Assembly: GCA_039704465.1 (NCBI GenBank) | Contig: JASFAU010000002.1 | Location: 1,736,001 to 1,800,000, forward strand | Direction: 5' to 3' | DNA from: Plasmodiophora brassicae | Lineage: Eukaryota > Endomyxa > Phytomyxea > Plasmodiophorida > Plasmodiophoridae | DNA: 64,000 bases | In this document: in pieces, positions 7,901-64,000 of the stretch | Numbering within the stretch: the first letter of the stretch is position 1 | Layout: each line of letters starts with the position of its first letter | Position numbers and translations under genes: made by a program | The notes under the pieces: model-generated | What the model was told of the DNA's origin: nothing | Database searches by the model: none | Seen by the model: only the letters and a program-made list of their open reading frames with translations

Positions 7901-7999
7901 CAGGGTGCCGATCAGCACCAATCGCAGACGCTTCCACTGCCGCCTGAATCTGACGATGAGCTCGCCTTCTCCGGTCCAGACGAACACGACGAACCTTAG
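4901..7999 (+). CDS. OFD1: OFD1-like centriole/basal-body protein
   Basis: Nine exons: 4901-5283, 5342-5428, 5487-5589, 5644-5755, 5806-5938, 5995-6154, 6213-6408, 6464-6537, 6590-7999 (introns 50-58 nt; total 2,658 nt, 885 residues). The N-terminus matches the OFD1 signature: a helix GLQRRLERSGLLDRLRAQLR followed by a LisH-type segment (VVAEFLARHEHDYARSVFL, then SESG) at residues about 65-88. The rest is nearly continuous coiled coil to residue about 650, then an acidic, Gln/Arg-rich tail. OFD1 caps the distal centriole and is needed for distal appendages and ciliogenesis; human OFD1 is about 1,010 residues. It ends 144 bp from the convergent TAF8 gene. The family call is strong; splice sites were placed by frame continuity. 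Confidence 0.88.
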
Positions 8000-43358: not shown

Positions 43359-46300
43359 CTACAACGCGTTGGAGGTGTCGTCCGGATCGCCGGTTACGTC
43401 GAGGGCGTTGTCAGTGACGTCGACGGATTCGACTTTCATCCGCCGTCGGCTGACTGCCTTCTTTAGAGAGTGCGAAGGGTCTTGGTCCGCCCTTCTGGCT
43501 GGCTGCAACTGCGGAGGCAGCTGATCTTCTTCCGCTGCCGGATCAACAAACGTCGTGACTGTGATCCCAGACGGACACTTGGTGATGTAGGACTCCAGCC
43601 TGGTGCTCCGCTCCGCTTTCAGTGCGATCGTCGTTCCGTTGCAGGTGAACCTCCACCCATCGTTCGGCATGCCCAGATCATTGATGATCTGCGCGCGGAC
43701 ATCGTCCAGTGTTGCCGACGGCCCGACAAGAACAGCACCCATCACTCGAGCCTGATTGGTCTTCGTCACCAGCGACACCTTTACGATGACGTCGCTCGCG
43801 ACAGTACTGCTCGTCGTCGTCGACTGACCGACCGGTGCGACATCTCGAAGCACCGCTCGCTGGCCAATGGTACCAAACACGCCAAATTTCCCTTCCTGCT
43901 TCTTGGCTATGGGCGCGTCCCCCGCCAGGAACAACCACTGGTCCGGAACCTTGCCACCCAGTGACTCGCTGATGACGCTTCGCAGGTCCTCGAGCTTCAA
44001 AGTCTGTGTTCTAGGAAACAGAACGAACCCCACAGGGGTGTCGTACCCTTCCATAAACACATCGATCCGCTCCTGGGTGCTGACATGTCGCCTGGGCGAC
44101 GCTTCAATAGCGTCAACGGCATGCGGAGGCATCGGCAACTGCTGCTGTTTGGCTGCAGCGAGTGTGGAAGAAGGGGCAGAAGGTGTAGCCGATGAGCTGG
44201 GAACCGCGGTTTGGGGCCTGGTCTCGACTGGCTTCGGTTGACTGAAAAGCAATAGGCTGGACTCCAGCGTGCCATCATCCGGCTCGTTGATGATACTGGC
44301 GCGTGACGCGATCCGTTTCGCTTCATCCTGCGCGGGGACGTTTCGTTCCGCCTTCCAGGCGCGGGATTTGTTGGGAATCGACGGCGACACCTTGCCTTTC
44401 TTAGCCTCCAGCAGCGTGATCGATGGCGGAGGCTCGTCGGGTGGCATGTTCAACTCCTCGACCAACTTTGCGACGTTGACACCGAGCGCCGAACGTCGGA
44501 ACTCGGGCGTTGCCGTTTTCGATGCCTTACTGTTGACCTCGAGCGTTGGTGTGGACGACGTCACATCCGTTGTCCGGATCGTGATCAAGAACGCGTTCTC
44601 ACCCACGGCGGTTCCGATCTCCCCGAGACGCATCGTGTTCTCCTGTCGGAACCCGACTGGGTTTGCCCCCGAGAGGAACACGAAATCCTGCAGGTCCGGC
44701 AACGCCTTCTGGATCATCTGCCTGACTGCGATCAATCGTTTCGGGCCAGCGTCCACCGCCACGGGGATCGATGTCGCCTGCCTTCCTCCTTCCACGCGCA
44801 CGTCGATGTAATTCGACTTGTCCTCCTTGCTGGTGTTGTACGCTGCCGGAGCGACACCGTCAGGTGCAATTTCGACGTTGGAAGTCTGCGCGGGAGACGC
44901 CTCATCAAGACTGGGCGGCGCAGCAGGCGCCGATTCGTTCTGTGCTGATTTGCCGTCAGTCTTGCTCTCGAGCGCGGTGCTGACTGTCGGCGATGGTGGT
45001 TCAGATTCAGGAGGGGGCATGCTCCAGGACAGCACGGAACCAGGGTATCCTGCGATGAGGCTGGGGCGGTGTTCATGTTTAGGAGTTGGCCTATTGGACG
45101 ATGTTGCGTGCCGGGTGATGGTGCTAGGCCGAGGCGTACTGTTGACGACAGGCCGGATCAGGATGAAGAAGACGTTGTCTGCTCCATTAACGGCGACAGC
45201 AACCTCCGACAGTCGGACAGTGTTTTCTTGGCGGAACCCAACGGTGACGTTGCTGACCTTCACGAGGAAAACGAACTCAGGCAGATCCGACGACGCCTTC
45301 ACCATTAGATCCCGAATCGAAATCAGTCGTTTCTTCAGCGAAGGTTTTGGAACCAACAAGGTCGACGCCGGTGGTCCGGATTGCCCTTCGGTGCGGATTT
45401 CCAGTCGAATCATCCCATCAGCGATCTCATTCGTTGACGAATTTGTCGAAGTTGTCGTTGTCTCTTCGATAACAGGGACCTTATCTTCGTCGGCGGGTAT
45501 CGGATCGACAACCGGTGGTCCAGCGGGAATCGCTGAACCTTCCTGCGTCTGCAGCCGAATGCGTTCGGCCAGCAAGAGGACGAGTTCGTACCCGCAGGTG
45601 ACGTCATGAACGCGCCAGCGGCCGAGGTCCACCGGGGTGGGCATAGGCACCATCCCCATTGTCGATCTACTGTCTCCCGTCGACACCCCGTCAAGATCGT
45701 GAGGAGTTCCCCAACGGAACAAAGCCCCTGACGAGGTGACCGCCAGGGTCATCGACTTCCCACAAGCGACCGTGCTAATCGTGACGTTGTCGAACGCGGG
45801 AACCTTAACGGGAACAGTCGACTGTCGTTGAAAGGCAGGGTCGACAAGCCCAAGTTGACCGCCCGTGTTGCATCCCCAGACGTAGAGCGCGCCGTCGCGA
45901 TCCATCAACGCTGCGTGCCGTGACCCGGCACGAATCGAAACGGCTCGTCCTTGAACGGCCCTGTTCGTGATACGCGTCAGAGCTGGACGATCCAGGCAGT
46001 CGCCATGCCCCAAACGCCCATGGCGTCCACTGCCGCACGAATAGACAAGGCCTTGATCCGTTAGAACGTACCTAAACATGTTTTCAGACCACCAATTTGC
46101 ATTTAACGCGATGCTGTCTTACGTGCTTTCAGTGGCGCAAGCGATCTGGCTGACTTTAGCGGTCAAGGTGATGTCAAGAGGGACAGGTTTGAAGTGGTGA
46201 ACGGACTGATCGCGCCCGAGCCAGGGTCCCTGGCCGCCCCAGGTCCAGAGGCGGTTGTCCTCGGTGCAGACGACGCTGTGCTTAGCGGCGGTGGCCAACG

Positions 46301-47801
46301 CTGTGACCGTCGTTGATTCGAAAGCAGTGATTCGTGTCGCTTGTGCAACGACCTTCACCTGTCCGCGCATGCCTAACAACGAGCACCGACCCCAGCCGTA
46401 GAGGTGTCCGGCCCCGTCCAACGCCAAATGGTGATCGCGACCGCACGAGACCGACTGGAACACAACAGGACTTGGGTCTTCGGTGCTGATGCGCATGACT
46501 GGCGACATGGTGACGCCGTCGTCCTTAACAGACCAAGCCAGCAGGTGCCCGGAAGTGGTGACGGCGGCCGCCTCCGAACAGGACGCCGATATGTACGCGA
46601 GGTTATCGGCGATGTTCACGAGAGACAGTGTCCCGTCTGCCTGCAGAGACAGGACGTGACGATCCGATGACGACCAGGCTGATGATAACATGGGATCGTG
46701 CTCGATCGCCACGTCACTGGCAAGCTCTTTGTGGGCGCCGTCGGGCGTTGGCACATCCGCAATTTCGTCCGCGTCCTTCTTGATATGATCGCTGTCATCG
46801 GTTTTGACGAATACGTTATGGAAGGCGGTGCCTTTGTCCGACACGACGACATCGTCGGGCTTGATGCTCTTCCGCCCGGAGACCAGCTCGGATATCGTCA
46901 TCCCGCGCATTGACCTGCCGACGACGGCCACAGGGGCTATCGACGACTGCGACGGCAGCGGCTCCTCCTCGACCTCCTCGACTTCGTCATCGTCCGCCGC
47001 GGCTGCGGCAAATGATATCTTCCTCGGAGCGGCGACAGGCTCAAGTCTCGCAGTTGTCTGCACCACGGAGTGTTTCGCAGCTGCGCGTGCCGAGGAGGGC
47101 CTCTGCACCAGAGGGTGCGCCACTGGCGCAATGTTCTCCGTGGACTGCAGCGCGGCCGCACTGGAGATCTGCGAGTGCGGGGTCGGCGCGGGCGACTGCA
47201 TCAGTGGCTGCGACGATTTCGCCCGCAGCGCCATGGCGCGATTGAACGCCACGATCCATTCCTGGCGGTCGCGTTCCGTGCCGACCTCGAGGTCGTGGTC
47301 GACGTCGTCGGCGCCGGTGAGCACGATGGACGCCTTGCCGACCAGGCGGATCTTGCTGGACGTCAGGTCGACGACGGTCGTCGGCGTCGCGCTGACGGTG
47401 ATGACGAGGCGCGCGTCGGCGGTCAAGACCAACGTGACGGTTGCAGATGCCATCTGGGCCGGTCCCGATCGTAGCGGGCGATCCGGCGCCTTCAACGACC
47501 GGTCGAGAAGCGACCGGAGCATGGCCTCCTGCTGACGGGCGTCGAACATTGTTTGCGATGCAATGTCGATGGGCAACGCGTCGGTGCGGTAGATGGTCAG
47601 CATAAGCGGGTCGCGAAGCTCGACCTGGACGCAGAGGATGCGCTGGACCGGGATCTCGATCGACAGCAACCCGTTGACGAACACCTCCACCGACTGCCGG
47701 AACGCGTTGACGCGCACGATCGACGGCGTTGCCGGCCGACCCGGCAGCCCGACATCGAACCGCGCCGGGATGCAATGCTGGGCCTGGACCTGATCTGCCA
47801 T
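43359..47801 (-). CDS. RCC1-repeat protein with PH-like domains and four beta-grasp-like repeats
   Basis: Two exons, 46123-47801 and 43359-46071, joined across a 51-nt intron (1,463 residues). Residues 20-110 and 125-200 look PH-like (VRVNAFRQSVEVFVNG; HDLEVGTERDRQEWIVAFNR). RCC1 repeats run from about 390 to 760 (GRDHHLALDGAGHLYGWG, LWTWGGQGPWLG, VYSCGSGRHGRLGHGD, GALYVWGCNTGGQLG). The C-terminal half carries four copies of an 80-residue unit with the signature FVFL...PVGFRQENT, separated by disordered linkers; the fold looks ubiquitin-like. RCC1 propellers often act as GEFs or scaffolds, and PH domains bind lipids. Starting at the ATG at 47801 removes an upstream frame that only shadows the next gene. 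Confidence 0.85.
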
Positions 47802-47968: not shown

Positions 47969-50900
47969 TCACCGGTCCAGCTGACGACGAACGTAGTCCT
48001 TCAGCGTGCTCATCTGGTTCATGACGTCGGGCGGGATTAGCATGAGAAGCGACCGCGTGCGCTTGATGTTGGCGTCGAGCTCGCCGATCAGCGGTTCGAA
48101 GACGAACACGTACGACAGGACGATGGCGACCATGACCAATGCGAACAATGTGATCTGCAGCGACTGTAGGCTGGTGACTTGGTCCTTGACAAGGGTTCTG
48201 ACCAGCTCCGCCACGTTCGTCATCGCCTGCGATAGGAACTGGAAGACAGCGACCGTGCTTGTCGCGAACGACGGCGTTTGGAACGTCGTGTTGATAGCCG
48301 TCGGCGTCATCAGCGAGTACAACCCGAAAGGGAGCTGTGTTCGTGCGGCTTGCGCCTCGTAAGTCTTCTGAATAGCGTCGAACCGATGCGCGCTCTGCTG
48401 GATCAGCATCATGACCAGGCGCATGGCCGCCTGCAGGCCCGCCGTCATCATGCCGTGATTGAACGTCTGGCACGCCGCGTAATCGACACCGTTCGTCGTC
48501 ACCCACCCGTTGCAGGCGTCAAAGACCCAGACCGTCAGACGCGCGTCGGAGAAGTACTTCCGATTCAGGATGCCCGGCTCGGGGTACCCGGGGAACCCGA
48601 ACATGAACAGGCGCTGGTGGTTGTCCAGGACGCTCAACTCGTTGGCCACGTCCACATACTGGTACCCGAACGCGTTGGCGGTCGGCCCACCGGTGCCGGC
48701 GCCGAGCGCGCGCACCGACGTCATCATCAGCATCGTCTGCACGATGCGCATGCCGACAAAGTTCAGGTCGTTGCACCCGGTGTCCAGCAGCTCGGTCGGC
48801 GCCGGCGCGTAGATGATCGCGCCGAGCACGGCGGCAATGTACGCGGCGACGACGATGACCAGGAAGTACATCTTGACGAACATGACCGCCTTGCGAACGC
48901 TAAACGTCTCGCCGGTCGACACCATACGACGCTTGCTGGCATCTTCGTTCTTCTTCTTCATCTTCGGAACGCCGACCACCTGCCCAGCATCCTCCTTGTT
49001 GGCGGCACCGGCCGGGCCGGCGCTTGAATGATCAGACAGGGTGTCCGGTTCGCGTTGCGATCCGGCGCCACCGCCCTGCTGTCCTAGGGCAGCATTGAAG
49101 TCGGCGGCGTCGTCAAGGTCGTCCCCATCAGCGGCATCGGACGAACGTTGGTCCAGCCGGTCCTGGAATTTCTTCTCGAGCGCGGCGACCTTGTCGACGG
49201 AGATCTCCAGGAAGAACCCGATGATCTGGTCCTCGTCGCGCTCGATGGATTTAACAACTGAACAACGTCACCGGTCAGCGTCTGCGAAAGGCGTGTCAGC
49301 GGGCATGATTACGTGGACGTAGCAACGTGAACAGGATGCCAATGATCAAGACGATCGAGACGACGGCCATGATGATAAACTGTTCATTGGCCGACACAAG
49401 GGCCGCCTTGCCTTCTTCCGCGAGGCCGTTCGCCGTCGAGTTCAGCATGCCGAGCATCGACGAGTCCCCGCGATGGTTCATCATGAGGATGTAGAGCAAC
49501 TCGGACCCGGGGCCCAGCTGGTCCAGCGGCGTCGTCGCCGCGATCTGCGCCTTGCCGGCAACGTACGAGCAGGCCTGATGCACCAGCTGCCGGACGATGA
49601 CATTCGACGACCCGACCCGCGTGTTCAATTCCACAACCGCAGACGATTCCGCGTTAAGGACCGCCGACCCGAGGCTTGACGACGAATGCACAAAGTCGTC
49701 GTTCTGGATCAGGGCGACGGCGTTCGCCACCTGGATCAGCACACACACAGTCAGCCCCCTCGAACCGGAGCGTACGACCAGCACAGCGCACGAGGTTGGA
49801 CCGGGCTATATCCTCCGACGCGAACGGCAACTGGATGCCCTGGCTCATGAACATCAACGACTGGGCGTTGTACGCGATCTGCATGAGGTTGGTTCGCCGC
49901 TTGACAGCAGCGTTCAGCACGTCCAGGTACTGGTTGTCTGAGACGGACAACAGCCAATCAGGCCTCAGGGCAAGAGCGGTACGTGAACGCCCGTTTGAAC
50001 GTACAGGTATCGAAGCTCATGAACTGGACGACGAAGACGGCGGTCATGATGCCCATGATGGCCAGGACCGCGACGCGGTACACGCGTCGGAATGAGAACA
50101 GCGTCCTGTCCAGGGACTTGCCCCGGCGGTTCAAATTGGTGAGGAGGACGCTGACGGACGACGACGCTGTTCCCGAGGAACCCGTCGCTCCGCTGACGAC
50201 CGTTGACGCCTTCTTCTCCGGGTCACCGGCCACAGCCTTCTGCACGCCGGAAGCAGCGGTGCCTGCTGTCCGCCCGCCCTCGACGGTGGCGGACCCGCTT
50301 CCAGGCGGCACGCTCCGGAACTCGGTCACGCCACCAGGCGATGTGACGGTCGTGCCGCCGACGTCGGACGCCTTCTCATCGCTGGCGCTGTCGCTGGACG
50401 ACGACCCGGCCGAAGCATCATCACCAATGCCCTGCTGGCCTTGGACACGAATACGAACAATGTCGACGACGTCGCCATTGCCGATCGGCATCGGATCGAA
50501 ACGCATCTGCACAAGCATGGCGGCGCCGTTGACGACGATCTTCATGTCCATCCCGGCGGAGTCGTCGTTCGCGAACGACTCGTCGGTTTCGAACGCGGCG
50601 CGTCTGTCGTCGTAGTCGGGCACCAGGCTGCGGATAGCGATGTCTCGCGCGTCCACACTGTCTTTGGTGATACCAAACAGGTCCAGGGCGGTCTGCGACA
50701 CGGCTGTCACCAACCCATCCCGGCGGTCGACGACCATCTGCACGTCGTCGTGGTTCATCGCCGTGACGATGCCGAGGTACGACAGCGCCATGCCGTTGTT
50801 CTCGACGAACGCCTTCAGGTAGATGGCCGCGTCCGCAATCAGCCCGTTGCGCTTCAGGACGACGATCTTACGCTTCCGGTCCAGCAGGCGCGACCGGGAC

Positions 50901-52908
50901 TCGCAGACGTTCCTGCGGACCATGGCCGTGTGCGCCCGGGAGATCGGCTCCGGGACTGCACGCGCACAGTCAGCGCCCGAACCAACGAAGGTTCGCCCAG
51001 CGGCCACCTACTGATGATGTCGAGCTGTTTGCCGACCAGGGCGGCCCGCGACAGACCGAACAGGGCCTCGGCGGCGTCGTTGACGTTCGTGATCTGGCAG
51101 AGCGTGCGCGGGTCGCCGCTGATGACGACGATAGTAGACCGGTCGCTGAAGAGCGTGCTGCGGAACGACTGGTCGTGCGAGCGCGCCTCCTCCGCCTTCT
51201 CCAGCGTCGACGCGCGCTCTTCCAGGGCCTGACCGCTGCCGGGGTCGTGCCCGAGATCCGCCAGGAACTTTGCAAACTGACGCAACGATGACACCGATCG
51301 GCTGTGAATGCGGAACATGTCCTTGTAGGCGGCACGAGCGGCGTGCTCGTCCCTGGAGATGGCCTCGCCGAGCGTTCGCAGCAGGTCGGTGTCCGGGGTC
51401 GGCTGGCGAAGTTCACCCCAGAACAGCGTCAGCGACTTGGTCAGCGACTCCTCGTACCGCTCGCCGGACGCCAGGTGCGCCGTGTACCTGTTGAAGTCGA
51501 CGACCTCCCGGTTGGCCTCCGACTCGAGGATGACGCGCTCGCTGTCGCGCTGCGTCCGATAGACGAGGAAGTCGTAGTCGACGGCGGACTCCAGGGCGGC
51601 CGCCCGCCCCAGGTGGTCGTACCCAACGTATTTGATGTCCAGGAAGCGGAAGTGCAGGATGGCGGCCCGGATCTGCAGGAAGACGGACGTGGGGAACTTG
51701 CTCAGGCCGGTGTCCATGATCGACTTGGCCTCAGCATAGAACGGCGCGGCGGTTTCCTCTTCCACCGATCGGTCGCTGGTCAGGTTGAAGATCTCCTCCT
51801 CGGTGGCGTCCTCGGTCAGCTTGGACAGCGTCCACTCCAGGTACGCCTCCCTGGCCGCCTTTTCAGCTTTCTGGAGCACGAGACGGCACTTCAGGTCAAT
51901 CTCGTAAGGGTCTTGGATCCTGTCCACTGGAACCGCCTCGATCTGGCTGATGCGCATGGTGATCAGGACGACGGCGCCGCCGATAACAATGGGGAGGCCG
52001 GCGAGCAGCATGTAGACCGGGCCGTTTGACGAAGGGTTGTCGATGGCAACGGCGACGGCGAACACGATCCCGATCCAGACCTGGGCCCAGAGCAGTGACC
52101 CGCGCAAGTACGTCAGCCGACGCGAATAGTCGGGCAGGATCCACATGTAGACGTAGGCCATGGCGGCGGGACCGCCCAGACCGACCAGCAGCGTGACGTA
52201 GTTGCTCGCCGCCGAAGAGACCGTGCCGCCGACTACGAACGATGTCTTCAGCATCAGGTACGCCAGCTCAACGCGTTGCGTTGGGCGGGACACGATCGAG
52301 GTGGCCTTCAGGTCCATCGGGGACAGAATGGCAACGGAGACAGCCGACGCGACAATGAGGATCAAGGAGGCCAACGTGCAAAGCCCGCCGCTGGCGGAGG
52401 ACGACGACGACGACGCGTTGTTGTTGGTGCTGTTGATGAGGACACTCAGCAGTGGGATGTACAAGACGGTGCTGACGAGGACGAGGACAACGCGAAAGAC
52501 CTTCTGGAATAGGGCTGATCCGGTCAGCTTGTCGCTGACGATGCCGAGTGCGCCAGCGATGGCGATGGCGTAGACGATGAGGCTGACGAGGAGCGGCGCG
52601 CTGTTGGCAATGGCGCCGTCGAGGGGAACGCGACCTACGATGGCGCAGAGCTGGCGTATCCAGAGCGTGTCGGCCGGGGCCCAGACCAGGTGGGTCGTGT
52701 CGATAGGGAACAGGAACTGGCACATCTGCAGGGCCTCCAGGACGTACGCGGCGATCCAAAGCACGTTCAGCGACGACTTGTTGGCGTGCAGCGTCAGCGC
52801 ATACGACAGCGCGAACGCGTTCTTCCCGAAATGCTTCAGCGCGTCCAGGACGGCGCTCTCGTCGCCGAGCTTGGCCGTCTCCATCCTGTCGTCGCCCGCG
52901 TCCGCCAT
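47969..52908 (-). CDS. TmcB-like multi-pass PAS protein, array copy 1
   Basis: Five exons: 51012-52908, 50005-50955, 49792-49937, 49313-49730, 47969-49257 (introns 56, 67, 61 and 55 nt; 1,566 residues). Residues 30-365 hold about nine membrane helices. Residues 370-590 form the TmcB/TmcC TPR-like region (DPYEIDLKCRLVLQKAEKAA ... RAAALESAVDYDFLVY). PAS domains lie at about 590-660 (NVNDAAEALFGLSRAALVGK then LDIIIPEPISRAH) and 705-760. A helix at 930-948, an extracellular-type loop to 1115, and further helices at about 1116, 1260 and 1505 follow. It ends KRTRSLLMLIPPDVM ... YVRRQLDR. It is likely a sensory membrane protein. Intron 1 explains an apparent frameshift at about 50995. Confidence 0.88.
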
Positions 52909-53246
52909 TGGTGCCGTGTCGAGGCTGTGAACGCGAAATGCCACAGTCGACCGGGGGCGCTCCGGCACAGACCCCCACGCGCTGCTGCCTTCCCACTGCC
53001 CACACACGAGACGTCACCCAATCACAGGCAACGCGTACCCAATTCCACCCTATACAGGCAGTCCTCAGGAGTCTCCCTCCCTCATTGATGCCGTTCCAAG
53101 TTATGAAGTTCGCGCGACAACCTCCAGTAGAGTGCAACGGCAGGCGCGGAACGTCCGGTCGGCTCGTCGGACAGTGCAATGGACCTGCCGGGACTGGCAC
53201 ACACAGAACAGGTACGCGCGTGCGAGACGTCGCCGCTGTATTGTGT

Positions 53247-56200
53247 TCAGCGGTCCAGCTGGCGGCGCACGTATTCCTTGAGGGATTTCATCTGGTTCAT
53301 GACGTCGGGCGGGATGAGCATCAGCAGCGACCGCGTGCGCTTGATGTTGGAGTCGAGCTCGCGGATCAGCGGCTCGAAGACGAACGCGTACGACAGGACG
53401 ATGGAGACCATGACCAGCGCGTAGAGCGTGATCTGCATCGACTGCAGGCCGGCGACCTGGCTGTTCACCAGCAGCTTGACGACGTTGCCCACATTGGTCA
53501 TCGCCAGGGTCAGGTACTGGAAGACGGCCACCGTGCTCGTCGCGAACGACGACGTCTGGAATGTCGTGTTGATGGCCGCTGGCGTCATCAGCGAGTAGAA
53601 CCCCAACGGCAGCTGTTTCTGGGCGGCGTGCGCCGCGTACGTCTTCTGGATGCCATCAAAGTGGTATGCGCTCTGCTGGATTAACATCATCACGGTGCGC
53701 ATGGCGGCCTGCAGCCCGGCCGTCATCATGCCATGGTTGAACGCGCGGCACCCGTTGTAGTCGACGCCGTTCGTCGTCACCCACCCGCTGCAGGCGTCGA
53801 AGATCCAGACCGTCATGCGCGACTGGGCAAAGTACTTCCGGTTCAGGATGCCTGGCTCGGTGTACCCGGGAAACCCGAACAGGAACAGGCGCTGATGGTT
53901 GTCCAGGACGTTGATCTCGCTGACGACATCGGAGAACTGGTACCCGAATGGGTTGGCGGTCGGCCCACCGGTGCCGGCGCCGAGCGCGCGCACCGACGTC
54001 ATCATCAGCATCGTCTGCACGATGCGCATGCCGACAAAGTTCAGGTCGTTGCAGCCGGTGTCCAGCAGCTCGGTCGGCGCCGGCGCGTAGATGATCGCGC
54101 CGAGCACGGCGGCGATGTAGACGGCGACGACGATGACCAGGAAGTACATCTTGACGAACATGACCGCCTTTCGCAGGCTGATGGTCTCCCCGGTCGACAC
54201 CAGGCGACGTTTCGCGGCGTCGTCCTTCTTGTTCTTCTGCGCGTCGAGCTTCTTCTCGTCCTCGACGGTACGTTTGTTACCGGCGACGCCCTCGTCGCTG
54301 GAGTGATCATCCGATGGGTTGCCAGGTTCGCCCCGGGACCTGTCGCCCGCCGTCGCCTGGCCCACTGGGCCCACCCCGGTGGCCTCGTTGAATTCATCGG
54401 CGTCCTGAAGGTCGTCTCCATCGGCGGCGTCCGTCGATCGTTGATCCAACCGGTCCTGGAACCGCTTCTCCAGCTTCGCCACCTTGTCGACCGGTATCTC
54501 GAGGAAGAACCCGATGATCTGGTCCTCGTCGCGTTCGATGGACCGCACAACTGAGCACGCCAGGCCGGGTCAGACATCGCGCGCCGACGCCCCGTCGACG
54601 AAACGGGCCGACGTACGCGGGCGCAGCAACGTGAACAGGATGCCCATGATCAGGACGAGCGAGACGACGGCCATGATGATGAACTCCTCGTTGGCCAGCG
54701 TCAGGGCCGCTTTGCCCTCCTCGGACAGGCCGTTCGCCGTCGAGTTCAGCATGCCAAGCATCGACGAATCCCCGCGAATGTTCATCATCAGGATGAAGAT
54801 CAATTCGGACCCGGGGCCGAGCTGGTCCAGCGGCGTGGTCGCCGCGATCTGCGCCTTGCCGGCAATGTACGAGCAGGCCTGGTGCACCAGCTGCCGGACG
54901 ACGACGCTGGACGAGCCGACGCGCGTGTTCAGCTCGACGGCCGCCGACGCTTCGGCGGCGAGCACCGCCGACCCCAGGCTCGATGACGAATGGATGTAAT
55001 CGTCGTTCTGGATCAACGAGATCGCGTTGTTCACCTACAGGGCAGATCGGCTCAGGAGGTGGACAAGGATGCGGCCGCGGCGCGTGTGGCCGACCAGGTT
55101 GGACCGGGCGATCGCCTCCGACGCGAACGGCAACTGTATGCCCTGACTCATGAACATCAGCGACTGGGCGTTGTACGCGATCTGCATCAGGTTGGTGCGG
55201 CGAGCGACGGCCGCGTTCAGCAGCGAGAGGTACTGGTTATCTGTCAGGGTAGGTGAGCCGAAGCAGGACGTGCTGCTGCTGCTGCTGCTGTTGTTGTACT
55301 TACAGTTGTCGAAGCTGGTGTACTGGACGACAAAGACGGCCGTCATGATGCCCATGATGACCAGGACGGCGAGGCGGTACACTCGCCGGAACGAGAACAG
55401 CGTCTTGTCGAGCGTCTTGCCCCGGCGGTTCAGATTGGTCAGCAGCACGCTGACCGACGACGACGCCGCCGTCCCCGACGACCCCGTCGTGCCGCTGACG
55501 ACCGTCGCCGCCTTCCTGGCCGCATCGGCGGTCACCGCCTTCTGCACGGCGGACACGCCCCGGGCGCCGGCTCCGCTCGCGTCGACGGTGACAGATTCCT
55601 GGTCAGGCGGCACGCTCCGGAACTCGGTGCCGCCGCCTGGCGACGACGTGACGGTCGTGCCGCCGACGTTGGACGCCTTCGCGTCGCTCTCGCTGGCATC
55701 CCACGACGGGTCGGAAACGGCGCCGTCGTCCACGCCCTGCAAGCGGCGATACCGAATGCGAACAATGTCGACGACGTCGCCATTGCCGATCGGCATCGGA
55801 TCGAAACGCATCTGCACATGCATGGCGACGCCGTTGACGACGATCTTCATGTCCATCCCGGCGGAGTCGTCGTTCGCGAACGACTCGTCGGCTTCGAACG
55901 CGGCGCGTCTGTCGTCGTAGTCGGGCATCAAGCTGCGGATGGCGATGTCGCGCGTGTCCACCTTGTCCTTCGTGATGCCGAACAAGTCCAGAGCGCCCTG
56001 AGATACGGCTGTCACCAACCCATCCCGGCCGTCGACGACCATCTGCGCGTCCTCCTCGTTCATCGCCGTGACGATGCCCAGGTACGACAACGCCATGCCG
56101 TTGTTCTCGACGAACGCCTTCAGGTAGATGGCCGCGTCCGCAATCAGCCCGTTGCGCTTCAGGACGACGATCTTGCGCTTCCGGTCCAGCAGGCGCGACC

Positions 56201-58208
56201 GGGGCTCGCAGACGTTCCTGCGGACCATGGCCGTGTGCGCCCGGGAGATCGGCTCCGGGACTGCACGCGCACAATCAGCGCCCGAACCAACGAAGGTTCG
56301 CCCCAGCGGCCACCTACTGATGATATCGAGCTGTTTGCCGACCAGGGCGGCCCGCGACAGACCGAACAGGGCCTCGGCGGCGTCGTTGACGTTCGTGATC
56401 TGGCAGAGCGTGCGCGGGTCGCCGCTGATGACAACGATGGCGGACCGGTCGCTGAAGAGCGTGCTGCGGAACGACTGGTCGTGCGAGCGCGCCTCCTCCG
56501 CCTTCTCCAGCGTCGACGCGCGCTCTTCCAGAGCCTGACCGCTGCCGGGGTCGTGTCCGAGATCCGCCAGGAACTTGGCAAACTGACGCAACGATGACAC
56601 GGAACGGCTGTGAATGCGGAACATGTCCTTGTAGGCGGCACGAGCGGCGTGCTCGTCCTTGGAGATGGCCTCGCCGAGCGTCCGCAGCAGGTCAGTGTCC
56701 GGCGTCGGCTGGCGAAGTTCGCCCCAGAACAGCGTCAGCGACTTGGTCAGCGACTCCTCGTACCGCTCGCCGGACGCCAGGTGCGCCGTGTACCTGTTGA
56801 AGTCGACGACCTCCCGGTTGGCCTCCGACTCGAGGATGACGCGCTCGCTGTCCCGCTGCGTCCGATAGACGAGGAAGTCGTAGTCGACGGCGGACTCGAG
56901 GGCGGCCGCCCGCCCCAGGTGGTCGTAGCCGACGTACTTGATGTCCAGGAAGCGGAAGTGCAGGACGGCCGCCCGGATCTGCAGGTAGACCGACGTGGGG
57001 AACTTGGTCAGGCCGGCCTCCATGATCGACTTGGCCTCAGCGTAGAACGGCGCGGCGGTGTCCTCTTCCACCGATCGGTCGCTGGTCAGGTTGAAGATCT
57101 CCTCCTCGGTAGCGTCCTCGTTCAACTTGGACAGCGTCCACTGCTGGTACGCCTCCCTGGCCGCCTTTTCTGCTTTCTGGAGCACCAGTCGGCACTTCAG
57201 GTCGATCTCGTATGCATCTTGGATCCTGTCCACTGGAACCGCCTCGATCTGGCTGATGCGCATGGTGATCAGGACGACGGCGCCGCCGATAACAATGGGG
57301 AGGCCGGCGAGCAGCATGTAGACCGGGCCGTTTGACGAAGGGTTGTCGATGGCAACGGCGACGGCGTACACGATGCCGATCCAGACCTGGGCCCAGAGCA
57401 GTGACCCGCGGACGAAGGTCATTCGACGCGAATAGTCGGGCAGGATCCACATGTAGACGTATGTCATGGCTGCGGGCCCGCCCAACGCGACCAGCACCAT
57501 GAAATAGCTGCTCGACGAGACAGTGCCCGCGATAACGAAGGCCGTCTTCAGCAGCAGGTAGGCGAGCTCGACGCGCTGCGTGCACCGGGACACGATCGAG
57601 GTCGATCGCAGGTCCACGGGGGACAGTACGACAACAGAAACACCAGCGACGATAGCGAGGATCAATGCGGTAACGCTGTTGAATCCGCTGCTGGCTGAGG
57701 AGGACGACGAGGCGTTGCTGGCGCTGGCAACGAGGACCTCCAGGAATGGTGCATACAGGACGGTGCTGACCAGGACGAGGACAGCCCGAAGAACCTTCTG
57801 CATGGGGACGGATGTGCCGACGTCGACTCGTACGATAGCGAGAATGAAAACCAGCGCGATGACGACAACGACGAGGCTGACGAGGAGCGGCGCGTTCTTC
57901 TCGCCGACGGCGCCGTCGATGGCGACGCGCCCGAAGATGGCGCAGAGCTGTCGCAGCCAGACGGTGGCCGTCGGCGACCAGACCAGGTCGGTCGTGTCGA
58001 CCGGCAACACGAACCGGCACATCTGCAGGACCTCCAGGGCGTAGGCGACGACCCAGAGCGCGTTCAGCGACGACTGGTTGGCGTGCAGCGTCATCGCGTA
58101 CGACAGCGCTGACGCGTTCCCGCCGAAGCGCTTCACCGCGTCGAGCAGGTTGCCGTCGTCGCCGCCCAGCTTGACCGCACCGGCCCGGTCCCCGTCGACG
58201 TCCGCCAT
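53247..58208 (-). CDS. TmcB-like multi-pass PAS protein, array copy 2
   Basis: Five exons: 56318-58208, 55304-56260, 55095-55240, 54617-55034, 53247-54550 (introns 57, 63, 60 and 66 nt; 1,571 residues). Architecture is as in copy 1. Introns 1 and 2 are multiples of three without stops, so the raw frame runs through them; the donor GTAAGT at 55303 and comparison with the other copies show they are spliced (giving DNYNQYLSLLNAAV). The TPR-PAS segment is nearly identical to copies 1 and 3, whereas the first 350 residues differ widely. Linker residues after PAS2 are Ser/Asp/Thr-rich (DPSWDASESDAKASNVGG). A 338-bp gap separates its stop codon from the start of copy 1. Confidence 0.9.
55271..55297 (+). 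repeat. CTG/TTG trinucleotide run inside intron 2 of array copy 2
   Basis: TGCTGCTGCTGCTGCTGCTG followed by TTGTTG lies within intron 55241-55303 (CAG/CAA on the coding strand). If retained it would encode a Ser-rich insert. The other two copies lack it. Confidence 0.85.
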
Positions 58209-58384
58209 GTCGGTGCAGGGAAGCGGGAAATGCTTGGCTCCACAACGACGCACCCGGCACAGACGCGCGTGTCCAGCCAGTGCTCGAGACCCGTTCCATC
58301 GTCAGCCAATCACAGGACCTGCAGGCGTTTAACCACCGCATGGCTCAGCGCAGGACGTTCCAGGGCGATGTCCCCCTGTATTGC

Positions 58385-61300
58385 TCAGCGGTCTAGTTGA
58401 CGACGCACGTACTCCTTGATCGACTTCATCTGGTTCATGACGTCGGGCGGGATCAGCATCATCAGCGACCGCGTGCGCTTGATGTTGGTGTCGAGCTCGC
58501 GGATCAGCGGCTCGAAGACGAACGCGTACGACAGGACGATGGAGACCATGACCAGGACGAACAGCGTGATCTGCATCGATTGCAGGGTGACCACCTGCGC
58601 GTTCACCAACCCCTTCACGACGTTGCCGACGTTCGTCATCGACGGCACGATGTACTGGAAGACGGCCACGGTGGCCGTCGCGAACGACGGCGTCTGGAAC
58701 GTGACGTTGATCGCCGGTGGCGACATGAGCGAGTAGAACCCGAACTGGAGCGGGCCTTGCCGGGCGCTGTCCTTCGCGTACGATTGCTGGACCTTGTCGA
58801 ACAGGTGCGCGCTCTGCTGGATGAGGACCATCACCGACCGCAGGGCGGCCTGCAGGCCCGCCGTCAGCATGCCATGGTTGAACGCGCGGCACCCGTTGTA
58901 GTCGACGCCGTTCGTCGTCACCCAGCCCTTGCACCCGTCGAACGACCAGACGACCAACCGCGACTGGTCAAAGTACTTCCGGTTTAGGATGCCCGGCTCG
59001 GGGTACCCGGGGAACCCGAACAGGAAGAGGCGCTGGTGGTTGTCCAGGACGCGCATCTGGTTGGCCACGTCCGCGTACTGGTACCCGAACGCGTTGGCGG
59101 TCGGCCCGCCGGTGCCGGCGCCGAGCGCGCGCACCGACGTCATCATCAGCATCGTCTGCACGATGCGCATGCCGACAAAGTTCAGGTCGTTGCAGCCGGT
59201 GTCCAGCAGCTCGGTTGGCGCCGGCGCGTAGATGACCGCGCCGAGCACGGCGGCAATGTACGCGGCGACGACGATGACCAGGAAGTACATCTTGACGAAC
59301 ATGACCGCCTTGCGGACGGTGACCGTCTCGCCGGTCGACACCACGCGACGCTTCGCGGCGTCCTCGTTCTTCTTCGTCCTGACGCCAGGCCGGTTGTTGG
59401 CGTCCTGGTCGTCACCTGCCCCGGCGACGTCCTTTCCGTCGGCATCAGCCTGGTCGTTGCTGGATCGATCCGACCGGTTCGAACGCGCGGTCGCCTGCGC
59501 CACCTGGCCGATCCCGGTCGCCACGTTGTACTCTACGGCGTCGTGCAGGTCGTCATCGTCGCCGTCCACCGACCGCTGATCCAGCCGGTCCTGGAACTTC
59601 TTCTCGAGCATCGCGACCTTGTCGACGGCGATCTCCAGGAAGAACCCGATGATCTGGTCCTCGTCGCGCTCGATCGCCTTCACGACTGGCACAGGACGCA
59701 TTAGACGATTGGCGACGATGGGCGAATCGCAACGGGGCGCGTACGCGGGCGCAGCAACGTCCACAGGATCGTCATGATCAGGACGAGCGAGACGACGGCC
59801 ATGATGATGAACTCCTCGTTGGCCAGCGTCAGGGCCGCTTTGCCCTCCTCGGACAGGCCGTTCGCCGTCGAGTTCAGCATGGCCAACATGGACGACTCCC
59901 CGCGAACGCTCATCATCAGCGTGTAGATCAGGTCGGAGCCGGGACCGAGCTGATTCAGCGGCGTCGTCGCCACGATCTGCGCCTTGCCGGCCACGTACGA
60001 GCAGGCCTGGTGCACCAGCTGTCGGACGACGACCCTGGACGATCCGACCTTGGTGTCCAGCGCGACGGTCGCTGCCGACTCGGCGTTCAACGTCGCCGAC
60101 CCGATGGCCAGCGACGAGTGGATGAAGTCGTCGTTCTGGATCAGCGAGATCGCGTTGTTCACCTGGCAGGGACGCTGTCGCGTCAGAGACCGGGTGGCAA
60201 ACGGCGGGCCGCCTGTGTACCAGGTTGGCGCGCGCGAACGATTCGGTGGCGAACGGCAGCTGGATGCCCTGGCTCATGAACATCAGCGACTGGGCGTTGT
60301 ACGCGATCACCATCAGGTTCGTTCGGCGCGCGACGGCCGCGTTCAGCAGCGCCAGGTACTGGTTATCTGCCCAAGCATCAGCAGGTGACGGGGCGTGCAG
60401 GACGAGCGTCCTACAGCTGCTGAAGCTGGTGTACTGGACGACGAAGACGGCCGTCATGATGCCCATGATGACCATCACGGCGACGCGGTACACGCGCCGG
60501 AACGACGACAGCGTCTTGTCGAGCGTCTTGCCCCGGCGGTTCAGATTCGTCAACAGCATGCTGACCGACGACGAGGCCGCCGTCCCCGACGATCCCGTCG
60601 TGCCGCTGATGACTGTCGCTGCCGGTTTCGTGGCCGCATCGGCGGTCACCGCCTTCTGCACGGCGGATGGGCCTGACCGTCCCGCCGCCAGGACGTTGTT
60701 GATCGACACCGATTCGTTGTTGGGCGGCACGCTCCGGAACTCGGTGCCTCCGCCCGGCGACGTGACGGACGCCCCGCCGGCGTCGGACGCCTTCTCGTCG
60801 CCGTCGCTGGACGACGGGTCGGTGGCGTGGTCGTTCGCTCGTGGCAGGCGACGGTATCGAATGCGAACAATGTCGGCGGCGTTCCCGTTCCCGATCGGCA
60901 TCACGTCGAACCGGGCCTGCACGTCAAAGACGGCGCCGCCGACGGTGATCTTCATGTCCATCCCGGCAGAGTCGTCGTTCGCGAACGCCTCGTCGGCCTC
61001 GAACGCGGCGCGTCTGTCGTCGTAATCTGGAATTAGGCTGCGGATGGCGACGTCCCGCGCGTCCACCTTGTCCTTCGTGATGCCGAACAGGTCCAGGGCG
61101 GTCTGCGACACGGCCGTGACCAGACCGTCGCGGCCGTCGACGACCATCTGCGCGTCCTCCTCGTTCATCGCCGTGATAATCCCGAGGTACGACAGCGCCA
61201 TGCCGTTGGTCTCGACGAACGCCTTCAGGTAGATGGCCGCGTCCGCAACGAGCCCATTGCGCTTCAGGAACACCACCTTGCGACGTCGATCCAGGATCCG

Positions 61301-63312
61301 CGACTTCGACTCGGTGGCGTTCCTGCGGACCATGGACGTGTGCGCCCGGGAGATCGGCTCCGGGACTGCACGCGCACAATCAGCGCCCGCACGCCGCAAC
61401 AAACGAAGGTTCGCCCCGGCCGCCACCTACTGATGATGTCTAGCTGTTTGCCGACCAGGGCTGCCCGCGACAGGCCGAACAGCGCCTCGGCGGCGTCGTT
61501 GACGTTCGTGATCTGGCAGAGCGTGCGCGGGTCGCCGCTGATGACGACGATGGCGGACCGGTCGCTGAAGAGCGTGCTGCGGAACGACTGGTCGTGTGAG
61601 CGCGCCTCCTCCGCCTTCTCCAGTGTCGACGCGCGCTCTTCCAGGGCCTGACCGCTGCCGGGGTCGTGCCCGAGATCCGCCAGGAACTTGGCAAACTGAC
61701 GCAACGATGACACGGATCGGCTGTGAATGCGGAACATGTCCTTGTAGGCGGCACGAGCGGCGTGCTCGTCCTTGGAGATGGCCTCGCCGAGCGTTCGCAG
61801 CAGGTCAGTGTCCGGCGTCGGCTGGCGAAGTTCGCCCCAGAACAGCGTCAGCGATTTCGTCAGCGACTCCTCGTACCGCTCGCCGGACGCCAGGTGCGCC
61901 GTGTACCGGTTGAAGTCGACGACCTCCCGGTTGGCCTCCGACTCGAGGATGACGCGCTCGCTGTCCCGCTGCGTCCGATAGACGAGGAAGTCGTAGTCGA
62001 CGGCGGACTCCAGGGCGGCCGCCCGCCCCAGGTGGTCGTACCCAACGTATTTGATGTCCAGGAATCGGAAGTGCAGGATGGCGTCCCGGATCTGCAGGTA
62101 GACCGACGTCGGGAACTTGCTCAGGCCGGCCTCCATGATCGACTTGGCCTCAGCGTAGAACGGCGCGGCGGTTTCCTCTTCCACCGATCGGTCGCTGGTC
62201 AGGTTGAAGATCTCCTCCTCGGTGGCGTCTTCGGTCAGCTTGGACAGTGTCCACTGCTGATAGGCCTGACGGACGGCCTGCTCCGACTTCTGGAGCACGA
62301 GACGGCACTTCAGGTCGATCTCGTACGGGTCTTGGATCCTGTCCACTGGAACGGCCTCGATCTGGCTGATGCGCATGGTGATCAGGACGACGGCGCCACC
62401 GATAACAATGGGGAGGCCGGCGAGCAGCATGTACAGTGGGCCAGATGATAACGGGTTGTCGATGGCAACAGCGACAGCGTACACGATGCCGACCCAGACC
62501 TGGACCCACAGGAGCGACCCGCGGACGAAGGTCATTCGACGCGAATAGTCGGGCAGGATCCACATGTAGACGTAGGCCATGGCGGCGGGACCGCCCAACG
62601 CGACCAGCAGCCTGAAGTAGTTGCTCGACGAGACGGTGCCCGCGATGACAAACGCCGTCTTCATTAGCAGGTAGGCGAGCTCGACGCGCTGGGTGCACCG
62701 GGACACGATCGAGGTGGATCGCAGGTCCACAGGGGGCAAGACAACGACAGCGACGACGGACATGAGGATGAGAATCGGGGCGGCGACCGTTCCCAAACTG
62801 GCGTTGGCGGACGAGGTAGACGTGTTGGCACTGGCGACGAGGACCTCGAGGAACGGCACGTACAGGATGGTGCTGATGATGACAAGGACGGCGCGCAGGA
62901 CCCTTTGTAGGGGTACGGAAGCGCCTAGATCATCGTTGACGATGGCAAGGATGAACCCGGCTGCAATGGTGATCACGATCAGGCTGACGATGAGCGGGGA
63001 GTTCTTGGCCCCGACGATGCCGTCGACGACGACGCGGCCGAAGACGGCACAGAGTTCGCGCAGCCAGTAGGAATCGGCTGGCGCCCAGACCAGCTCGCTG
63101 GCGTTGAGCGGCAGCACGAAGTGGCACATCTGAAGGACCTCGATCACGTAGACCACAACCCAAAGAACGTTCAGCGACGACTTATTGGCGGGCACGGTGA
63201 GCGCATAGGATAACGCAAACGCGTTCTTCCCAAAGTGCTTCAACGTGTCGAGCGCGTTGCCTTCGTCGCCCAGCTTGGCCGTGTCCAACAGGTCGTCGCC
63301 GAGGTCGGCCAT
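58385..63312 (-). CDS. TmcB-like multi-pass PAS protein, array copy 3
   Basis: Five exons: 61431-63312, 60415-61365, 60221-60366, 59745-60162, 58385-59685 (introns 65, 48, 58 and 59 nt; 1,565 residues). Same order of domains as copies 1 and 2: N-terminal membrane helices, TmcB-type TPR region, PAS (IIPEPISRAHTSMVRRN after splicing), second PAS (DGLVTAVSQTALDLFGI), and C-terminal membrane region ending KEYVRRQLDR. Exons 3 and 4 have exactly the same lengths (146 and 418 nt) in all three complete copies. Its start lies 153 bp from the stop of copy 4. Raw frames run through intron 3 in part, which explains an odd Arg/Pro-rich stretch there. Confidence 0.9.
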
Positions 63313-63465
63313 CGCGGCCCTGATGGCAGCCGGCGACGCGAAATGTCGACGAGCACACGTGCCCGGCACAGACCGGCGGCTCGTTTCAACTCGACGAGCT
63401 GATCTCCACCCATCACACCAGCGCGTTGCCCGCGTGTACAACGCGGTCGGGATTTATGGGGGACG

Positions 63466-64000
63466 TCAACGGTCCAGCTGGCGGCGGATGTACTCCTTGA
63501 GGGACGGGACCTGGTCCATGACGTCGGGCGGGATCAGCATCAGCAGCGACCGCGTGCGCTTGATGTTGGCGTCGAGCTCGCGGATCAGCGGCTCGAAGAC
63601 GAAGGCGTACGACAGGACGATGGCGACCATGACGAGGACGTACAGGGTGATCTGCAGCGATTGCAGGCTGGCGACCTGCGTGTTCACCAGCACCTTGACC
63701 TTGTTGCCGACGTTGGTCATGGCGGGGACCAGGTACTGGAAGACGGCCACCGTGCTCGTCGCGAACGTCGGCGTTCGAAACGTGGCATTGATCGCGGACG
63801 GCGTCATGAGCGAATAGAACCCGAACTGAAGCGGGCCTTGCTGAACGACGTTCTTCGCGTACGCCTGCTGAATCGTGTCGAAGCGATGGGCGCTTTGCTG
63901 GATCAGCAACATGACAGATCGTAGGGCGGCCTGCAGGCCCGCCGTCATCATGCCATGGTTGAACGCGCGGCACCCGTTGTAGTCGACGCCGTTCGTCGTC
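63466..64000 (-). CDS. TmcB-like multi-pass PAS protein, array copy 4 (partial, runs off window)
   Basis: Only the last 177 or so codons are present, from NGVDYNGCRAFNHGMMTAGL to the end SLKEYIRRQLDR. They include the final membrane helix (VLVMVAIVLSYAFVFEPLI) and the conserved KRTRSLLMLIPPDVM. The sequence is clearly homologous to the last exon of copies 1-3. The 5' part lies to the right of position 64000. Confidence 0.9.
   Translation of the reverse strand, partial: TTNGVDYNGCRAFNHGMMTAGLQAALRSVMLLIQQSAHRFDTIQQAYAKNVVQQGPLQFGFYSLMTPSAINATFRTPTFATSTVAVFQYLVPAMTNVGNKVKVLVNTQVASLQSLQITLYVLVMVAIVLSYAFVFEPLIRELDANIKRTRSLLMLIPPDVMDQVPSLKEYIRRQLDR

What the first reader, a model, noticed from the sequence alone, without database searches (positions are those of the whole stretch)
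47969..64000. Head-to-tail array of four TmcB-like PAS receptors with a homogenised sensory core
Three complete genes and one partial gene share the same strand, five exons, identical lengths of exons 3 and 4 (146 and 418 nt) and intergenic gaps of 150-340 bp. The TPR-PAS segment (for example 51013-51900, 56319-57210, 61432-62325) looks about 95 percent identical in DNA, while the first 350 residues and the post-PAS linkers have diverged strongly. That mosaic suggests gene conversion of the PAS core with diversifying membrane/ectodomain parts, as expected for a sensor family with a shared signalling core.
Basis: partly seen in the sequence, partly recalled or inferred. Interest (0 to 1): 0.75.

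Follow-up and report, generated by a model that had tools for sequence, protein, structure and literature searches.

The report
Gene-converted array of four membrane sensors
In the clubroot parasite Plasmodiophora brassicae four neighbouring sensor-like genes have repeatedly copied stretches of DNA from one another, so parts of the genes stay nearly identical while the rest drifts apart; this is a clear example of a known process, with a side clue that these sensors may carry an oxygen-sensor-like pocket.

Summary
The array is real. Genes A, B and C lie whole in the window; D runs 4.46 kb past its end, and no further copy was found. They are TmcB-type (TPR-PAS) multi-pass proteins of Plasmodiophora brassicae.

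Gene conversion is strongly supported. Synonymous divergence among A, B and C is 0.13-0.20 in the TPR/first-half-PAS segment and mostly 0.25-1.1 elsewhere. Intron 1, inside that segment, is 93-98% identical among A, B and C over aligned columns; most comparisons of introns 2-4 do not beat shuffles. Different pairs are near-identical in different places (quartet heterogeneity, 0 of 2000 permutations). A dispersed pair of the same family shows no comparable sustained dip.

Corrections: the homogenised block starts near residue 245, not 350; PAS after intron 1 is homogenised mainly in A/B; a second island and further tracts lie in membrane and ectodomain parts. No region of A-C has dN/dS above 1, so diversifying selection is not shown. 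D is frame-shifted in this assembly; an intact counterpart is in the protein database.

Lead: the PAS has the FixL/DosP heme-pocket His and Arg (+20) in four of four and Arg (+6) in A-C. Heme binding is untested.

The parts
47969..52908 (-). Gene A, five exons: 51012-52908, 50005-50955, 49792-49937, 49313-49730, 47969-49257; 1566 aa
   Evidence: P0001, one residue different
53247..58208 (-). Gene B, five exons: 56318-58208, 55304-56260, 55095-55240, 54617-55034, 53247-54550; 1571 aa
   Evidence: identical to P0002
58385..63312 (-). Gene C, five exons: 61431-63312, 60415-61365, 60221-60366, 59745-60162, 58385-59685; 1565 aa
   Evidence: P0003, two residues different
63466..64000 (-). 3' end of gene D; the gene goes on to 68463 in window numbering (contig C2:1799466-1804463); its exon 2 is frame-shifted in this assembly
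50456..51542 (-). A/B conversion tract (A coordinates): 3' part of exon 1, intron 1, 5' part of exon 2; 95.9% identical
   Evidence: 0 of 1000 permutations; silent sites alone 51223-50456, 0 of 10000
50909..51387 (-). A/C tract (A coordinates), 96.5% identical; a B/C tract at 50909-51547 overlaps it
   Evidence: 0 of 1000
51711..51934 (-). B/D tract (A coordinates), 99.6% identical; B/C is 84.7-95.3% in the windows there
   Evidence: silent-site run 51883-51736, 1 of 10000
50956..51011 (-). Intron 1 of A (56 nt): 98% identical to B and 93% to C over aligned columns; D has a 122-nt intron that aligns poorly
48641..48924 (-). Second homogenised island in exon 5 (A/C tract): membrane helix and start of the last ectodomain
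49341..49449 (-). B/C tract (A coordinates), 109 bp at 100%, in the membrane helix near the end of exon 4
   Evidence: 0 of 1000
50099..50249 (-). B/C tract (A coordinates), 94.2%, end of linker before the first C-terminal membrane helix
   Evidence: 0 of 1000
48448..48566 (-). B/D tract (A coordinates), 95.8%, in the last ectodomain
   Evidence: 0 of 1000
51187..51522 (-). TPR_TmcB domain of A (residues 463-574)
   Evidence: Pfam PF25474, 64.1 bits, cut-off 27
50864..51129 (-). First PAS domain of A (residues 594-663), split by intron 1; His641 and Arg661 at FixL-pocket positions

Best explanation
A tandem array of four TmcB-type multi-pass membrane receptors (N-terminal membrane domain, TPR, PAS, a second weaker PAS-like stretch, then two helix-ectodomain-helix modules) in which short, repeated interlocus gene conversion between neighbours has homogenised some segments and left others to drift under purifying selection. 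Shown: the array, its domain and hydropathy anatomy, and the patchwork of pair-specific tracts including an intron. Inferred: conversion rather than another form of exchange; that constraint on the TPR/PAS core keeps it similar enough to go on converting; which parts face outside; and that the proteins are sensors whose ectodomains or PAS detect a signal and pass it through TPR contacts. No enzymatic output domain was found by Pfam.
For: dS for A/B, A/C, B/C in residues 250-632 is 0.13, 0.19, 0.20; the two linkers 0.44-1.09; residues 1-190 0.44-0.81; island 1240-1345 0.13-0.25. Bootstrap intervals of core and N-terminus do not overlap in any of the three pairs. Intron 1 is 93-98% identical among A, B, C (0 of 500 shuffles each); of the 18 comparisons of introns 2-4, 3 are reached by 5% of shuffles or fewer. 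Quartet patterns change along the gene, chi2 108.8, 0 of 2000. Tracts for AB, AC, BC and BD significant after x6 correction; silent sites alone: AB, AC and BD 0 of 10000 in the scored test. Control: the C19 paralog pair has dS 0.31, 0.24 and 0.30 in its three coding blocks. Domains; hydropathy.
Against: The test is my own re-implementation, not the program GENECONV. Silent-site tests are not significant for CD (1585 and 1644 of 10000), weak for AD (289 and 151 of 10000) and for BC in the scored version (333 of 10000; 70 of 10000 for the unbroken run). A block-preserving circular-shift test is weaker: 60 of 1560, 19 of 1553, 60 of 1560, and the block limits were set after seeing the data. In the C19 control one TPR window also has dS 0.11, and its TPR-PAS block is the lowest of the three. 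D's intron 1 is weakly like A's (9 of 500). GC3 is 0.72-0.96, so dS is compressed. Island 2 is alike in all four copies and gives few pair-specific sites. Sensor function rests on domain names only; both structure predictions failed (mean pLDDT 41.3 and 34.2).
Confidence: 0.87

Rival explanations
1. No conversion: synonymous sites (and the intron) in the TPR/PAS segment evolve slowly because of codon, splicing or mutational constraint.
For: The core is also the most constrained at protein level (dN/dS 0.11-0.15); the C19 pair has one low window (dS 0.11) in its TPR segment.
Against: Similarity is pair-specific: B/D 99-100% in two windows where B/C is 84.7-88.7%; D leaves the block before intron 1; intron 1 is shared closely by A, B, C only; the C19 pair shows no sustained dip.
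Confidence: 0.06
2. Unequal crossing-over within the array made chimeric genes, rather than conversion tracts.
For: Tandem, same-strand copies are ideal for it; copy number could have changed.
Against: Several interior tracts between different pairs, the long ones 109-1087 bp, with divergence on both sides, would need many double events. A single tract cannot exclude it.
Confidence: 0.05
3. Assembly artefact: collapsed or duplicated copies.
For: Near-identical segments are where assemblers err; D carries a frameshift in this assembly.
Against: Four distinct proteins matching A-D are in the database, each listed on two contigs of which the longest is 1,933,843 bases against 1,914,452 here; D's counterpart is intact at 1567 aa, though its listing names no source. 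Copies differ widely outside the tracts.
Confidence: 0.02

Closest known systems
TmcB-type proteins (Pfam PF25474 TPR_TmcB with PAS)
   Same: P0001-P0004 score 62.0-65.3 bits against a cut-off of 27, with PAS directly after the TPR segment; D of this assembly scores 67.2 over that stretch. Ten further loci of the same genome are over the cut-off (two matches on C6 merged).
   Different: The best-scoring paralog is 28% identical. No relative from another named species was found, each of which scored only about 7990-7997 candidates; the one other hit was an unnamed multi-PAS histidine-kinase protein.
Interlocus gene conversion in tandem protist gene arrays, such as Trypanosoma brucei (PMC1855330; search listing and start of abstract only)
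   Same: Tandem duplicates and gene conversion in a protist.
   Different: Here several tracts between different partners are read along one multi-domain receptor, with intron sequence as the neutral witness.
Conversion of one sensory domain between neighbouring genes: GAF-A of TbrPDEB1/B2 (PMC2689650; search listing and start of abstract only)
   Same: A sensory-domain stretch is shared between adjacent paralogs.
   Different: Here the homogenised stretch is membrane helices + TPR + half a PAS, in a four-copy array with further tracts elsewhere.
FixL/DosP heme PAS
   Same: All PDB sequence matches of P0001 (13, E up to 0.1), P0003 (13, E up to 1) and P0004 (13, E up to 1) are FixL or DosP, counting the entry named yddU as DosP (recalled) (P0002 not searched). 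His641 and Arg+20, and in A-C Arg+6, fall on FixL His194, Arg214 and Arg200 by position and spacing.
   Different: No kinase or phosphodiesterase found; far below NCBIfam equivalog cut-offs (18.5-29.8 against 850-857 bits); the position of DosP Met95 is Arg here.

Membership tests
TmcB-type receptor (PF25474) | TPR_TmcB domain over the curated cut-off | tested here: met
   62.0-65.3 bits against 27 in 4 of 4 database proteins P0001-P0004; genome stretches of A, B, C and D also over it
TmcB-type receptor (PF25474) | PAS domain after the TPR segment | tested here: met
   PAS_8 and PAS over cut-off in 4 of 4 and PAS_9 in 3 of 4 of P0001-P0004; TIGR00229 35.1-39.3 bits, cut-off 22.9
TmcB-type receptor (PF25474) | Multi-pass N-terminal membrane domain (recalled as a family trait) | tested here: met
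   Hydropathy peaks over the first ~325 residues in 4 of 4 of P0001-P0004; topology not predicted
TmcB-type receptor (PF25474) | Biological role as in Dictyostelium TmcB | not testable with these tools
   No paper on it in the listings (one search showed 15 of 2,731)
Interlocus gene conversion | Non-uniform synonymous divergence along the copies | tested here: met
   (A, B, C)
Interlocus gene conversion | Tracts specific to particular pairs, beyond permutation | tested here: met
   AB, AC, BC, BD; AD marginal; CD not significant
Interlocus gene conversion | Neutral (intron) sequence homogenised inside a tract | tested here: met
   intron 1 in A, B, C (0 of 500 each); intron 4 in B/C (1 of 500)
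Interlocus gene conversion | Shared polymorphism between copies in a population | not tested
   Only 1, 0 and 2 residue differences of A, B, C against one other protein set
Diversifying selection on ectodomains | dN/dS above 1 | tested here: not met
   Ectodomains 0.14-0.45 among A, B, C; over the whole genes 30-codon windows with dN>dS: 13 of 307, 1 of 305, 14 of 307; no site model run
Heme PAS (FixL/DosP type) | Proximal His on the F helix | tested here: met
   Gapless alignments shown for P0001 and P0004; same residue in P0002 and P0003
Heme PAS (FixL/DosP type) | Distal Arg at His+20 and Arg at His+6 | tested here: inconclusive
   +20 Arg in 4 of 4; +6, read by eye from the same printout, is Arg in A, B, C and Ala in D
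Heme PAS (FixL/DosP type) | Bound heme | not testable with these tools
   needs spectra of purified domain

The most novel reading that the evidence does not exclude
The PAS of these eukaryotic TmcB receptors is a FixL-type heme pocket, making them membrane-bound oxygen or other diatomic-gas sensors of an intracellular root parasite, and conversion keeps that shared sensor while each copy keeps its own membrane and linker parts.
Probability: 0.15. Interest if true: 0.7.

Novelty: new member of a known kind. Interest (0 to 1): 0.4.

Why it matters
It gives a clean protist example of a receptor array being rewritten by exchange between neighbours, and warns that trees of these receptors depend on which segment is used. 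Exchange between copies also bears on whether P. brassicae recombines: PMC6823432 (abstract and passages seen) argues for possible recombination from meiosis-related gene homologs; ectopic conversion does not itself require meiosis. If the heme lead holds, it would name the kind of signal.

Tried and rejected
Diversifying selection on the ectodomains: not supported, no regional dN/dS above 1 among A, B, C. Biased conversion raising GC3 in the core: no consistent rise (core 0.87-0.89 against 0.85-0.88 at the N-terminus and up to 0.96 in other parts). The two C-terminal modules as an internal duplication: not shown; hhalign lines up the helix after each module's second membrane span, but at probability 0.6%. 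Fold identification: both AlphaFold2 models were too poor to search, so no fold search was run. Relatives elsewhere: one search gave none, one search gave the four P. brassicae proteins and one unnamed multi-PAS histidine-kinase protein, (query: paralog C11) gave one P. brassicae protein; in each only the 7990-7997 candidates sharing most words were scored. Heme specificity: the control, 447 residues of that unnamed multi-PAS protein, has FixL as its best PDB match among 66 of many kinds, so the name of the hit alone proves little; read by eye, the control's FixL-like PAS has the His but not the two Arg. A C19 paralog frame has no PAS match in PDB. Paralog C7 matches FixL first but also PAS kinase and potassium-channel PAS; C11 matches FixL first. 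A loose His-motif scan of 15 paralog loci records (several covering the same place) gave five places with a PAS-like context; Arg+20 is present in three, one has Gln, one reads Gly, perhaps across an exon end. Literature: no paper on TmcB sensors or on this array in the listings; some searches listed only 15 of 2,731, 15 of 3,704 and 8 of 28. One search (heme PAS, protist, oxygen sensor) found none. PMC8298192 (passages seen) reports one P. brassicae 'PAS domain S-box' gene overexpressed in one host at low nitrogen; I did not link it to these genes. PMC3019232 (passages) on oomycete PAS proteins did not help.
Full report
What was checked. The window is contig C2:1736001-1800000 of a 25.34-Mb, 21-contig genome. 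Database proteins matching the genes are labelled Plasmodiophora brassicae. The size and contig count resemble the published long-read assembly of strain e3 (25.1 Mb, 20 nuclear contigs plus one mitochondrial; PMC6823432, abstract and passages), but I did not establish which strain this is.

The array. Four genes on the minus strand, five exons each. Exon lengths: A 1897/951/146/418/1289, B 1891/957/146/418/1304, C 1882/951/146/418/1301. A, B and C are open and encode 1566, 1571 and 1565 residues; they agree with P0001, P0002 and P0003 at all but 1, 0 and 2 residues. D has the same exon 3 and 4 lengths, but its exon 2 is out of frame in this assembly; an intact 1567-residue protein, P0004, identical to D over exon 1, is in the protein database. 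D ends the array at 68463 in window numbering. tblastn of P0001 over 89 kb shows no further copies or remnants, and a whole-genome DNA search with the 892-bp core gives four matches (such counts are lower bounds).

What the proteins are. Pfam finds TPR_TmcB well over its cut-off in 4 of 4 database proteins, followed by PAS. A second, sub-threshold PAS-like stretch follows in exon 2 of A, B and C (PAS_8 15.8-17.6 bits against 21.8). Hydropathy shows a multi-pass N-terminal domain and two further pairs of hydrophobic helices bracketing ectodomain-sized stretches at the C-terminus. The family has ten other loci over the Pfam cut-off in this genome (C1 x2, C5 x2, C6, C7, C11, C18, C19 x2, two matches on C6 merged). 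The C1 and C19 loci match both C-terminal modules; C6 matches a short piece of the second. So the architecture is that of a family, and the array is a local expansion within it.

The mosaic. Identity in 150-bp windows runs from about 48% to 100% along the genes, and the nearest partner changes: A/B 98.7% near position 817, B/D 99.3-100% at 967-1042, A/C 99.3% near 1267, A/B again 97.6-99.2% through intron 1 and into exon 2. Synonymous divergence follows: core 0.13-0.20, second island 0.13-0.25, elsewhere mostly 0.25-1.1, with post-intron PAS at 0.14 in A/B but 0.35-0.37 with C. Quartet patterns are heterogeneous (chi2 108.8, 0 of 2000). A GENECONV-like scan with x6 correction gives tracts for AB, AC, BC and BD, a marginal one for AD (0.042-0.048) and none for CD. 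With silent sites alone AB, AC and BD stand (0 of 10000 in the scored test), BC and AD are weak and CD is not significant.

Why conversion and not constraint. Intron 1, inside the A/B/C tract, is 98, 93 and 95% identical over aligned columns for AB, AC and BC (0 of 500 shuffles each). D carries a longer intron 1, which beats shuffles only weakly (9, 43 and 33 of 500 reach it for AD, BD, CD). Of 18 comparisons of introns 2-4, three are reached by 5% of shuffles or fewer: B/C intron 4 (1 of 500), near a B/C tract, B/D intron 4 (12) and C/D intron 3 (13). As a control I took the family's C19 pair, an inverted 5.4-kb duplicate about 230 kb apart: its dS is 0.31, 0.24 and 0.30 in N-terminal, TPR-PAS and C-terminal coding blocks, with single windows from 0.11 (in the TPR segment) to 0.47 and no sustained core dip. 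Block-preserving shifts give weaker support (19 of 1553 to 60 of 1560).

The homogenised part is not the PAS as such: it begins in the last N-terminal membrane helices, and only the first half of PAS is shared by all of A, B, C. Tracts also lie in membrane and ectodomain parts. The most diverged parts are the cytosolic linkers and about the first 245 residues. No region shows dN/dS above 1 among A, B, C, although some 30-codon windows do have dN>dS (13 of 307, 1 of 305, 14 of 307); older divergence under purifying selection is enough.

How it most likely works. Shown: anatomy and exchange. Inferred: the copies are membrane sensors; the TPR/PAS part is the shared signalling core; strong constraint keeps it alike, which in turn favours more exchange. 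No output enzyme was recognised, so the partner is unknown.

A lead. All 13 PDB sequence matches of P0001 (E up to 0.1), of P0003 and of P0004 (E up to 1) are FixL or DosP (P0002 not searched). The printed alignments place His641 of A on a FixL His and a DosP His. Spacing identifies them: His+20 is Arg in 4 of 4, as in FixL His194/Arg214, the Arg that contacts bound O2, and His+6 is Arg in A-C (by eye), as FixL Arg200 (PMC10765370, passages seen). For DosP, His77 and Arg97 are known to me from titles in the reference list of PMC4263535, and I counted the residue from the aligned chain assuming a 20-residue tag (recalled). Paralogs C7 and C11 also match FixL first, C7 with other PAS kinds as well. 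The control shows that FixL is a common match. I rate heme binding at 0.15.

Verdict. A real, well-supported case of patchwork gene conversion in a receptor array: known process, new example.

Noticed in passing
L055 and L056 (C19:20001-30000 and C19:255001-264900): A second TmcB pair: inverted 5.4-kb duplicate about 230 kb apart, 87% identical, used as a control.
   Followed up: yes
63466-64000 and on to 68463 (contig C2): Gene D is frame-shifted in exon 2 in this assembly, while an intact counterpart is in the protein database; strain difference or assembly error.
   Followed up: partly
2279-4145: About 78 copies of a 24-base C/A-rich repeat with very strong base skew.
   Followed up: no
45567-46607, minus strand: RCC1-repeat matches in two adjoining minus-strand frames next to the array, probably exons of one gene.
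   Followed up: no
L012, L014, L016, L018, L021: Other TmcB-type loci carry the same PAS His; three of these five also have Arg at +20.
   Followed up: partly
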